Shown here piece by piece: positions 46 to 32,506 of a DNA stretch of 32,506 nt. The notes beneath the pieces are model-generated. The model did no database searches and was not told where the DNA came from. It saw only the letters and a program-made list of their open reading frames with translations. The DNA lies in assembly GCA_934462775.1 (NCBI GenBank), contig CAKSIR010000007.1:1-32506 (forward strand), written 5' to 3'. A program made the position numbers and the translations under genes. Numbering within the stretch: position 1 is the stretch's first letter; each line of letters begins with the position of its first letter. This stretch comes from an uncultured Ruminiclostridium sp. GTDB taxonomy: Bacteria; Bacillota; Clostridia; Oscillospirales; Ruminococcaceae.

Positions 46-76
46 ATGAAAAATGCGGGGCGCTTTCACCCCGCAC
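46..76 (-). terminator. Duplicate copy of the symporter terminator hairpin
   Basis: Positions 54-60 and 69-75 form a 7-bp GC-rich stem (TGCGGGG / CCCCGCA) with an 8-nt loop. Read on the minus strand the stem is followed by ATTTTTC, the form of an intrinsic terminator. The 31 bases 46-76 are identical to 330-360, directly downstream of the symporter gene, so this is a second copy, placed on the far side of the repeat at 73-285. On the plus strand it also serves as the first hairpin of that repeat. Confidence 0.6.
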
Positions 77-285
77 AGACTGTCGAAAAACTTGCCACCG
101 GCAACTTTTTCGAGGATTATGCTGCGAAAATTTTTCACTTGTGGGGCGCTTTTTTTCTTGAAAAAAGTGCCCCACACCCCTGCAAAAAAGCGCCTTGTGT
201 TAGAGATTCCGACTTCTGCGGAAGTCGGCTTAGGGCGTTGCCCTAAGTACCCACCACTTTTTGAAAAAAGTGGACAAAAACTTTA
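73..285. repeat. Multi-hairpin intergenic repeat, copy 1
   Basis: A non-coding element of about 213 bases with at least five hairpins: 83-113 (8 bp plus 5 bp around a C-C mismatch, loop ACC), 141-175 (15 bp with one G-U pair), 209-228 (8 bp, loop TGCG), 229-247 (8 bp, loop GTT) and 254-273 (9 bp, loop GA). The first 121 bases match 32328-32448 in the same orientation with only four differences, and these are two compensatory base-pair changes. After that the two copies differ in sequence but keep the same hairpin order. It lies between genes and is preceded by the duplicated terminator hairpin. Possible roles are terminator, transcript stabiliser or small mobile repeat; function unknown. Small reading frames across it are not credible genes. 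Confidence 0.85.
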
Positions 286-329
286 AATTTGATTTTTCAA
301 CAGCCAGTATGGCGATATTGCTTTTTGGT

Positions 330-360
330 ATGAAAAATGCGGGGCGCTTTCACCCCGCAC
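330..360 (-). terminator. Intrinsic terminator of the symporter gene
   Basis: Directly downstream (minus strand) of the symporter stop codon, TGCGGGG and CCCCGCA pair across an 8-nt loop, followed on the minus strand by ATTTTTCAT. The position, GC-rich stem and T-run fit a rho-independent terminator. The sequence is identical to 46-76. Confidence 0.75.
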
Positions 361-30903: not shown

Positions 30904-32301
30904 ATGAAATTTGTTCAGAGATTTGCGGCGGCGTTTGTAGCTGTCGTTACGGCAATGACCTTTCTGGTTTTCCCCAGTTCCGCCGCAAAGGTGCTTGAAT
31001 GGGACGGAAAAGCGGAGCTGGTTTCGGGAAATAAATACATAGTGTCGTCGGATCTGCGGGTGCGGAACGATTTCGTAATCCCTGAGGACGCAAAAATTAT
31101 CGTCAAGGACGGCGCGTCCATGGTTATCGGGCTGAACGTCCGGGCGCAGATTTACGGCGAGCTTTCGGCTGCAATCGGCGGCTCGATTACAAATTCGGGC
31201 GACATCGTGGTGGAAGAGGGCGGACAGCTTAACGCCTACGGCGAGTTTTTGTCGTCGGTAAGCGCTACTTTGAAAATCAAGGGCGCCTTCAGCGTCTACA
31301 ACCACGGAAGCTCAAAGATTTCTTCCGCGGTAAGCCTGTTCAAGACAGGCTCGATCTACAATAAGGGCAGAGTGGTGTTCACCAAGAGCAGCGACTCCAA
31401 ATTCTCCGCGCCAATCACAATAACCTCCAAGGGCGAAATGCACTTCCAGGGAAACGCGGCGGTAACGGTCAGCGGCTCGGTCGACTGCTCCGGCTACATG
31501 ACGGTAGGCAAGGTGGGAACGCTGAAAATCAGCGGCTCGGTAACGCTTCAGCGCAAGGCGGACTATAACCGTTTCGGTACGGTTGAAACCACCGTAAGCG
31601 GTACGTTCACCGATAAGCGCGACGGCACAAACTACCGCAAATACACCGTTGAATCCATTGTCGACGAGACGGACGTAACTCTCAGGGGCGTTGACGTTTC
31701 CTACGCTCAGGGCAATATAAACTGGGAAAAGGTTGCCGCAAGCGGAATAGATTTTGCAATAATCAGAGCGGGCAGAGGTCAGGCAGGCTCAAAGCCGATG
31801 AAGGAGGACGATTACTTCGCAAGGAACATTCAGGGCGCGCAGGCGAACGGCATTGACGTAGGCGTATATTTTTACAGCTACGCGACTTCCGTCGAGGAAG
31901 CGAAAGCGGAGGCTAAGTTCTTTGTAAGCATTATCCAAAACTATGAGATAACCTATCCCGTTATCCTTGACATGGAGGAGGAAATGCAGTCGGGTCTGTC
32001 CAAGGACGAGCTGACCGACATGATAGACGCATTCTTCAAGCAGGTTATGCGGGCGGGATATTACCCCATGCTCTACTCCTACAAGTCGTGGATAGAGAGC
32101 AACCTTGACATGAGAATACTGGACAAATACGCGGTATGGCTGGCTCAGATTTCGTCAGCGCCAAGCTATGACGGCGCATTCTATATGTGGCAGTATTCGT
32201 ACAAGGGCAAGGTAAGCGGAATAAGCGGAGCGGTGGATATGGACATTGCGTACAGGGACTTCCCAAGCATTTTCAGACGAAAAGGAATAAATAATTTATA
32301 A
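30904..32301 (+). CDS. Secreted GH25 lysozyme with N-terminal beta-repeat domain
   Basis: A 465-residue secreted muramidase predicted to cleave peptidoglycan glycan strands. A signal peptide covers about 1-28 (hydrophobic core 8-23, cleavage near SSAA). Residues about 30-245 are Gly/Ser/Val-rich short strands with recurring S-G-x-V/I and G-x-L patterns, suggesting a parallel beta-helix that could bind the wall or surface glycan. Residues 260-460 are the GH25 domain: GVDVSYAQG with D264, ILDMEEE (354-360) with the catalytic-type D356 and E358, and VDMDIAY with D445 and D447. It lies beside a wall deacetylase and a surface-polysaccharide locus, so a role in wall remodelling or autolysis is likely. 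A prophage endolysin is less likely, as no phage genes are near. Confidence 0.92.
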   Translation: MKFVQRFAAAFVAVVTAMTFLVFPSSAAKVLEWDGKAELVSGNKYIVSSDLRVRNDFVIPEDAKIIVKDGASMVIGLNVRAQIYGELSAAIGGSITNSGDIVVEEGGQLNAYGEFLSSVSATLKIKGAFSVYNHGSSKISSAVSLFKTGSIYNKGRVVFTKSSDSKFSAPITITSKGEMHFQGNAAVTVSGSVDCSGYMTVGKVGTLKISGSVTLQRKADYNRFGTVETTVSGTFTDKRDGTNYRKYTVESIVDETDVTLRGVDVSYAQGNINWEKVAASGIDFAIIRAGRGQAGSKPMKEDDYFARNIQGAQANGIDVGVYFYSYATSVEEAKAEAKFFVSIIQNYEITYPVILDMEEEMQSGLSKDELTDMIDAFFKQVMRAGYYPMLYSYKSWIESNLDMRILDKYAVWLAQISSAPSYDGAFYMWQYSYKGKVSGISGAVDMDIAYRDFPSIFRRKGINNL

Positions 32302-32306
32302 TAGGT

Positions 32307-32331
32307 GTGCCGTCCGTTCTGCGGACGGCAC
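32307..32331 (+). terminator. Hairpin after the lysozyme gene
   Basis: A 10-bp GC-rich stem (GTGCCGTCCG / CGGACGGCAC, loop TTCTG), 5 bases after the stop codon. It is not followed by a T-run, so termination is uncertain. Its 3' arm is also the first part of the repeat element, in the same place as hairpin 54-75 of copy 1. Confidence 0.55.
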
Positions 32332-32506
32332 AGACTGTCGAAAAACGTGCCACCGGCACCTTTTTCGAGGATTATGCTGCGAAAATTTTTCACTTGCGGG
32401 GCGCTTTTTTTCTTGAAAAAAGTGCCCCGCACCCCTGCAAAAAAGCGCTTTACAAAGGGAATTTCATCCTCTGCGGAGGACGACCAAAGGCTCTGCCTTT
32501 GGAATC
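32328..32506. repeat. Multi-hairpin intergenic repeat, copy 2 (cut by window end)
   Basis: Bases 32328-32448 match 73-193 without gaps and with four substitutions, all in paired positions and all compensated. Hairpins are 32338-32368, 32396-32430, 32467-32480 (loop TGCG) and 32484-32502 (CCAAAGGC / GCCTTTGG). The last two differ in sequence from copy 1 but match in order, size and loop type. The final hairpin seen in copy 1 would lie beyond the window. Confidence 0.85.

What the first reader, a model, noticed from the sequence alone, without database searches (positions are those of the whole stretch)
73..285. Two intergenic repeat copies whose only differences are compensatory base-pair changes
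Over 121 gap-free bases, copy 1 (73-193) and copy 2 (32328-32448) differ at four positions. T92/A104 becomes G/C, and T142/A174 becomes C/G. Each pair faces itself in a hairpin stem, so all the divergence preserves pairing. Beyond this the copies have different sequences but the same series: a stem with a TGCG loop, then an 8-bp stem with a 3-nt loop (CTTAGGGC/GCCCTAAG versus CCAAAGGC/GCCTTTGG). This indicates selection on RNA or cruciform structure and may be an undescribed structured repeat family.
Basis: seen in the sequence. Interest (0 to 1): 0.8.

Follow-up and report, generated by a model that had tools for sequence, protein, structure and literature searches.

The report
Terminator-targeting hairpin mobile element (IS1182-type)
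The two repeats are copies of a short, gene-less jumping DNA element that lands in the stop signals at the ends of bacterial genes and leaves a copy of that stop signal on both of its sides; its hairpins do keep their pairing while their sequence changes, but the evidence points to DNA-level behaviour rather than to a new RNA gene.

Summary
Observation confirmed exactly: 4 differences in 121 nt, two facing pairs in two stems. A related draft genome (G001; symporter 91% identical) holds 17 further matches. On 15 copies, 22 of 55 stem pairs change on both sides yet stay paired (0 of 500 shuffles reach this). No Rfam match at gathering threshold.

It is a mobile element. Its ends read CAGNNNGTCGAAAAA...TTTTTCGACNNNCTG and abut terminator palindromes, which are duplicated on both sides (window 46-75 = 330-359): 7 of 10 testable short elements clearly, 1 weakly. 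Full-length IS1182-family insertion sequences in the same taxonomic family have the same ends; 8 of 13 with both ends found carry a 20-39 bp duplication exactly at both. So the window copies are most likely MITE-like elements moved by an IS1182-type transposase, though none was found in G001.

RNA-level selection is not supported: G-U and A-C mismatches are about equally rare, stem S3 is 255 of 256 Watson-Crick with no G-U, both orientations occur at gene 3' ends, and stem alleles change in blocks. The hairpin chain also occurs in relatives without these ends; its movement there is unexplained.

The parts
46..75 (.). left copy of the duplicated target: terminator palindrome
   Evidence: 30-bp exact repeat of 330-359, null maximum 10; terminator-like on the - strand
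76..307 (+). element copy 1, 232 bp, MITE-like, downstream of and antisense to the Na:alanine symporter gene (368-1942 -)
   Evidence: R2 128.1 bits at 76-185; R1 100.9 bits at 206-284; symporter
76..90 (+). left terminal inverted repeat CAGACTGTCGAAAAA
   Evidence: same form as the ends of IS1182-family elements
83..113 (+). hairpin S1 (83-96/100-113); holds pair 92/104; terminator-like on both strands
140..176 (+). hairpin S2 (140-155/161-176); holds pair 142/174
209..228 (+). hairpin S3, TGCG loop
229..247 (+). hairpin S4, 8-bp stem, 3-nt loop
254..273 (+). hairpin S5 (254-262/265-273)
293..307 (+). right terminal inverted repeat, decayed (TTTTTCAACAGCCAG)
330..359 (.). right copy of the duplicated terminator palindrome, 22 nt beyond the element end
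32308..32330 (.). palindrome (9-bp arms) abutting copy 2 on its left, after the GH25 gene (30904-32301 +)
32331..32506 (+). element copy 2, cut by the window end; S1 32338-32351/32355-32368, S2 32395-32410/32416-32431, S3 32464-32471/32476-32483, S4 32484-32491/32495-32502
   Evidence: 129.1 bits; 50.6 bits, cut at 3'

Best explanation
The two repeats are copies of a roughly 230-bp non-autonomous (MITE-like) mobile element that uses the ends of an IS1182-family insertion sequence. A DDE transposase of that family, supplied in trans, most likely joins the element at the feet of the stem-loop of a gene's intrinsic terminator, so that the whole stem-loop ends up on both sides (shown: the ends, the site and the duplication; inferred: the transposase acting in trans, and the strand chemistry). 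The element's interior is a chain of five hairpins. Their pairing is kept on both DNA strands alike while stem sequences are replaced in blocks and shuffled between copies; I infer that template switching between arms (palindrome correction) and recombination between copies do most of this, with selection against lost pairing as a helper. S1 looks like a terminator on both strands, so the insertion probably leaves transcription termination intact and nearly harmless (inferred).
For: Ends: 30 matches to CAGNNNGTCGAAAAA in G001 against 1 for the reversed control. Site: 17 of 31 ends (29 from G001, 2 from the window) have a perfect inverted repeat of at least 7 bp abutting them, against 21 of 2000 random positions. 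Duplication: 7 of 10 testable short elements of two unrelated interiors share these ends and a duplicated palindrome, 1 more weakly. Autonomous partner: a complete IS in G278 codes a 498-aa IS1182-family transposase (NF033551, 391.2 bits, cut-off 270) between such ends; among 30 loci of relatives of that protein, 13 had both ends and 8 of these carry exact 20-39 bp palindrome duplications at both ends, element lengths 1496-1583 bp. Mobility: in relative L001 the region downstream of the orthologous symporter lacks the element. DNA-level pairing. Literature: IS1272/TnSha1 of the IS1182 family target terminator hairpins (PMC4923244, passages and part of the Discussion); the model of Wan et al. 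[quoted passage not shown] template switching makes multibase compensatory changes (PMC8794818, abstract and start of the text).
Against: No IS1182 transposase was found in G001 (no match), and the window's own genome is not held. The five full-scoring IS1182 matches in G001's genus (L151-L155) have no convincing ends of this type within 2 mismatches; only gene fragments there (L158, L159, L161) do. Of the genomes richest in the end pattern, G449, G376, G069, G442, G371, G238, G214 and G201 gave no DUF772 match and were not examined further. Copy 1's right end is decayed and 22 nt lie between it and the second palindrome. L107 and L125 lack the duplication; 5 of the 13 full IS do too. The same hairpin chain in G057 and other species lacks these ends, and none of 10 distinct testable copies shows a flanking repeat above its null. 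The DNA-level reading of the covariation rests on small mismatch counts.
Confidence: 0.8

Rival explanations
1. A structured RNA (3'-UTR element, sRNA or riboregulator) kept by selection on the folded transcript.
For: 22 of 55 pairs covary; conserved loops (TGCG in S3) and linkers; five hairpins in constant order across species.
Against: G-T 9 against A-C 13 among 709 cells; no G-U in 256 S3 pairs; either orientation relative to the gene that reads into it; the interior is bounded by transposon-type ends and a target duplication; block changes of four adjacent pairs in S2 (L094, L097) without intermediates among the other rows.
Confidence: 0.08
2. A structure-bearing DNA repeat (REP/BIME-like hairpin chain) that spreads by its own, unknown route, and which in the window's lineage only later acquired or was captured by IS1182-type ends.
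For: The right half of the chain occurs in 32 of 71 genomes of the genus, often many copies (G002 66, the scoring cap), mostly not with the left half (7 of 71); G057, G026, G027, G066 and G075 copies that I read lack the ends; none of 10 distinct testable copies has a flanking duplication; some two-hairpin units occur as inverted pairs (L214, L215, L217).
Against: In the window and G001 the ends and duplications are explicit. Boundaries in other species were placed crudely. No convincing link to a Y1/RAYT transposase: Y1_Tnp in 5 of 10 genomes, absent from G001 and G002, with only 5 weak model matches (16-25 bits) in 4 of the 7 loci, not examined.
Confidence: 0.3
3. Cruciform or single-stranded DNA structure is selected because the transposase or a host protein reads the hairpins.
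For: Pairing is kept equally on both strands.
Against: Full-length IS with the same ends and the second short element type lack the S1-S5 chain as read, so the chain is not needed for end recognition as such. No direct test.
Confidence: 0.15
4. Convergent tandem duplication or assembly artefact, not a mobile element.
For: The window is a contig-like record with copies at both ends, and several G001 contigs end inside copies.
Against: Many dispersed copies with different flanks and target duplications; contig breaks are what a high-copy repeat would cause.
Confidence: 0.02

Closest known systems
IS1182 family (IS1272, TnSha1) insertion sequences
   Same: Ends as in full-length IS1182-family members of the same taxonomic family; insertion at palindromic terminators (PMC4923244 and PMC5678879, passages).
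   Different: No transposase gene. [quoted passage not shown] PMC4923244 Discussion, part).
Bacterial MITEs (review PMC10969869, passages only)
   Same: Short, non-coding, terminal inverted repeats, target duplication, many copies, transcripts able to fold.
   Different: The target duplication is a 23-30 bp terminator palindrome rather than the few bp given there (7-9 bp for QMITE2), and the interior is a chain of covarying hairpins.
REP/BIME/REPIN palindromic repeats (recalled)
   Same: Extragenic hairpin units, some as inverted pairs in relatives.
   Different: No Y1/RAYT link found; the window copies have DDE-type ends.
SPRITE of Streptococcus pneumoniae (named in PMC10969869, passage)
   Same: Repeat that looks like a Rho-independent terminator.
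   Different: Not compared by sequence here.

Membership tests
IS1182-type MITE | terminal inverted repeats matching an autonomous IS1182-family element | tested here: met
   CAGNNNGTCGAAAAA ends on window copy 1 left, copy 2 left and G001 copies; same ends on IS with NF033551 transposase. Right end of window copy 1 is decayed. Exact same-species partner not available.
IS1182-type MITE | target is a palindrome/terminator | tested here: met
   17 of 31 ends against 21 of 2000 random positions
IS1182-type MITE | duplication of the target at both ends | tested here: met
   7 of 10 clearly, 1 weakly; 8 of 13 full-length IS; in window copy 1 with 22 nt extra on the right
IS1182-type MITE | no coding capacity of its own | tested here: met
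   Longest listed ORFs overlapping copy 1 are 77 and 81 aa, running through hairpins and beyond the element; none of at least 90 aa there
IS1182-type MITE | transposase available in the same genome | tested here: inconclusive
   none found in draft G001; window genome not held
IS1182-type MITE | demonstrated transposition | not testable with these tools
   only presence/absence: region after the symporter in L001 lacks it
structured RNA family | significant covariation | tested here: met
structured RNA family | strand-specific tolerance of G-U pairs | tested here: not met
   9 G-T against 13 A-C; S3 0 G-U in 256; small counts
structured RNA family | constant orientation to its transcript | tested here: not met
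   of 12 window and G001 copies, a gene reads in from the 5' side in 6 and from the 3' side in 8, both in 3 (mechanical ORFs)
Rfam families | match at gathering score | tested here: not met
   0 matches; best sub-threshold near copy 1 24.3 bits against 37
REP/RAYT | association with a Y1 (RAYT) transposase | tested here: inconclusive
   Y1_Tnp in 5 of 10 genomes, not in G001 or G002; 5 weak model matches in 4 of 7 loci, not examined

The most novel reading that the evidence does not exclude
A family of extragenic hairpin chains in these Clostridia shows textbook covariation across species without any RNA function: stem alleles are rewritten at DNA level (template switching between arms, allele swapping between copies), and in one lineage the chain has become an IS1182-type passenger whose transposition duplicates the whole target stem-loop, the branch that Wan et al. 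drew for IS1272 but did not report seeing.
Probability: 0.4. Interest if true: 0.65.

Novelty: new variant of a known kind. Interest (0 to 1): 0.5.

Why it matters
It shows, with many copies, an IS1182-type element whose insertion duplicates the complete target stem-loop; in the two papers seen, IS1272 replaces it, and duplication is only one branch of a proposed model. That makes the target chemistry directly testable. It also warns that compensatory changes, the usual proof of a functional RNA, can accumulate in a mobile DNA palindrome; the near absence of G-U and the lack of strand bias offer a practical test to tell the two apart. Contigs that end in such repeats explain part of the fragmentation of these metagenome assemblies.

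Tried and rejected
Exact 19-mer core: 0 in viral contigs and 0 in genome contigs; no phage or plasmid match. The whole-element DNA search beyond G001 gave only one-off weak hits (1 weak match each in G006, G022, G032). IS1182 by PF13751 in G001: none. The 3-kb pair of end motifs in G402 was rejected: the right one lies inside an ORF, and the left belongs to a tiny element. Group II intron reverse transcriptase reading frame in L134 is an insertion within an IS, not part of the element. RAYT link: not supported. Rfam low-score matches: judged chance. Literature: 'IS1182 + target site duplication + hairpin' returned 0 papers; searches showed no listing of such a MITE in this library, which lacks most subscription journals; the reviews of Siguier et al. 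are not held and are known to me by recall and through citation in PMC4923244 and PMC5678879. My recollection that ISfinder gives IS1182 direct repeats of 0-60 bp comes from no call.

Rows dropped: of 17 G001 matches, 4 partial ones (L093, L095, L096, L098) were left out of alignment A1. In one search only elements with both ends recognisable were tested (11, of which L084 has no right flank); G001 copies with decayed or missing ends (for example L083, L087, L088, L089, L090, L097) were not. In one search the first 43 of 59 aligned rows were used, duplicates removed, S5 not counted, and the alignment had been fitted to the model. In one search, L210 and L257 are the same place and L213 had no left flank, so 10 distinct copies were testable. 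In one search, 17 of 30 loci had no pair of ends; L272 is the same place as L141.

Full report
What is there. Rfam has no match in the window at gathering threshold. The window is chromosomal in character: of ten proteins scanned with Pfam, nine had matches, among them a sodium:alanine symporter, sugar nucleotide transferase, glycosyltransferases, a Wzt-type ABC protein, polysaccharide deacetylase and a GH25 lysozyme-like protein. Copy 1 lies beyond the 3' end of the symporter gene and antisense to it; copy 2 lies beyond the 3' end of the GH25 gene and in sense.

A family of copies. No whole genome is held for the window. The symporter led to a close relative, contig CAMDZU010000019.1, an uncultured Clostridia bacterium, 91% identical. 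Its draft genome (G001) has 17 DNA matches to the repeat at E up to 0.01. Among 71 genomes of that genus the DNA search found 3 with a match, two of them single weak ones. The region downstream of the orthologous symporter in L001 has no copy (by reading; by model).

Covariation. On an alignment of both window copies and 13 of the 17 G001 matches (four partial ones left out), a five-stem structure has 95.8% of 709 cells paired, 22 of 55 pairs with a change on both sides (shuffled mean 10.6), 56 such cells (14.1), none of 500 shuffles reaching any of these values; sliding the partner strand by 1-3 columns gives 0-4 such pairs. One pair in S1 and one in S3 show all four Watson-Crick types.

The element and its ends. 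Copies begin with CAGNNNGTCGAAAAA and, where complete, end with the reverse complement of the same form. This end occurs 30 times in G001 against 1 for the control pattern, and some matches belong to a second short element with an unrelated interior. Just outside the ends there is a terminator-like palindrome: 17 of 31 ends (29 from G001 and both from the window) have a perfect inverted repeat of at least 7 bp abutting them, against 21 of 2000 random positions in the same loci. The palindrome recurs on the other side of the element. Of 11 elements with both ends recognisable, 10 had both flanks; 7 show the duplication clearly (L081 29 bp, L085 30, L091 48, L105 25, L108 23, L094 14 exact and 27 with one mismatch by eye, window copy 1 30), L116 weakly (11 exact), L107 and L125 not; shuffled flanks gave at most 9-11. 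In the window the repeat is 46-75 and 330-359, the second 22 nt beyond the decayed right end of copy 1.

The partner. In G278, a genome of the same family, a complete insertion sequence of about 1.58 kb with the ends CAGCCTGTCGAAAAA and TTTTTCTACAGGCTG carries a 498-aa protein that NCBIfam names IS1182 family transposase (391.2 bits, cut-off 270; Pfam DDE_Tnp_1_6 and DUF772). Its relatives were found in 36 of 396 genomes of the family. Of the 30 loci returned, 13 show both ends; 8 of these have an exact palindrome duplication abutting both ends: L273 29 bp, L276 39, L278 31, L280 25, L281 22, L283 32, L284 20, L290 25, with element lengths of 1496-1583 bp; four have different palindromes on the two sides and L292 only 8 bp. 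This ties ends, target and duplication to an IS1182-family transposase. Against it stand the absence of such a gene in draft G001, the lack of these ends on the five full-scoring IS1182 copies of the genus (L151-L155; only fragments L158, L159 and L161 have them), and the fact that several genomes with the most end-motif matches (for example G449 with 94 and G376 with 78, controls 0) gave no DUF772 match. Those genomes were counted, not examined.

Wider occurrence of the hairpin chain. Two covariance models, R1 for the right half and R2 for the left half, were run over the genus: R2 in 7 of 71 genomes (24 matches in G001, 8 in G057, 2 in G050, one each in four others), some of them reverse-strand matches of the same hairpins; R1 in 32 of 71, with 66 in G002, which is the scoring cap. 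Over 299 genomes drawn from the phylum, R1 found G001 and one other at 1e-5, with 15 candidates scored per genome. The copies that I read from G057, G026, G027, G066 and G075 keep the order of hairpins but have other stems and no CAG/CTG ends, and 10 distinct testable copies show no flanking repeat above chance, with boundaries set crudely. So the chain is broader than its IS1182-ended form.

What keeps the pairing. If one RNA strand were under selection, G-U should be commoner than A-C on that strand. The counts are 9 and 13 among 709 cells, 5 of the 13 at one outermost pair and 3 at a pair disturbed by a nested insert. In a wider set S3 is Watson-Crick in 255 of 256 pairs with no G-U; S4 in 273 of 300, with 7 G-T and 5 A-C. 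Four adjacent pairs of S2 are changed together in L094 and L097, with no intermediate in the other rows. S3, S4 and S5 alleles combine freely between copies: the window copies carry different S4 alleles, each shared with several G001 copies. Elements lie at gene 3' ends in either orientation: among 12 window and G001 copies a gene reads in from the element's 5' side in 6 and from its 3' side in 8 (3 of them both), and in 11 of 12 at least one does (mechanical ORFs). This fits template switching between arms, described as able to make multibase compensatory changes in one event (PMC8794818, abstract and start of text), plus recombination between copies. It does not exclude selection on DNA structure.

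Mechanism. Shown: ends, site, duplication, partner family. Inferred: the transposase acts in trans, and its strand transfer at the two feet of an extruded target stem-loop gives the duplication. Wan et al. drew this as one branch of a model for IS1272, whose actual insertions replace the stem-loop (PMC5678879, abstract and passages). TnSha1/IS1272 targets were confirmed as terminators by RNA-seq in another paper (PMC4923244, passages and part of the Discussion). S1 has a T-tract after its stem on both strands and scans as a terminator both ways, so the insertion may leave termination intact.

Verdict. A real, strongly covarying repeat; most likely an IS1182-type MITE-like element that duplicates its terminator target, built on a hairpin chain that is older and wider than this form. 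Not good evidence for a new RNA.

Noticed in passing
L088, L089, L091, L093, L094, L096, L098, L085: Small palindromic modules of about 30 nt sit inside hairpin loops of the element (AGAGTGGAATTGC.AAGCAATTCCACAGAGC; TTGGTACTATTGCGAAGCAATAGTACAGAGC; GCGAGGAATTTGGCAAGCCAAATTCCTCATAGGC), as if hairpins were inserted into hairpins.
   Followed up: no
L105-L109, L111, L116 (G001): A second short element with the same ends begins with a 33-bp near-perfect palindrome (CAGCTTGTCGAAAAAGTATTTTTCGACAAGCTG) and has its own interior; also flanked by duplicated terminators in L105 and L108.
   Followed up: partly
L214, L215, L217, L256 (G002, G018, G003): Two-hairpin units of the S4-S5 kind occur as inverted pairs with their 3' sides facing, REPIN-like, in high copy in G002.
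   Followed up: partly
L134 (G278:C4): A group II intron-type reverse transcriptase reading frame lies inside an IS with the same left end.
   Followed up: no
L251 (G057:C95:1-600): Another short element with ends CAGACTGTAGATAAA...TTTTTCTACAAACTG and a duplicated terminator lies next to a hairpin-chain copy that has no duplication (by reading).
   Followed up: partly
family of G001, e.g. G449, G376, G069, G442, G371: Very high counts of the end motif CAGNNNGTCGAAAAA (94, 78, 74, 40, 37) against 0, 0, 13, 0, 3 for the reversed control; suggests large unexamined populations of such elements.
   Followed up: no
window 2275-29538: Most of the window looks like a surface polysaccharide gene cluster (GMP-type nucleotidyltransferase, glycosyltransferases, Wzt-like ABC protein, epimerase).
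   Followed up: no
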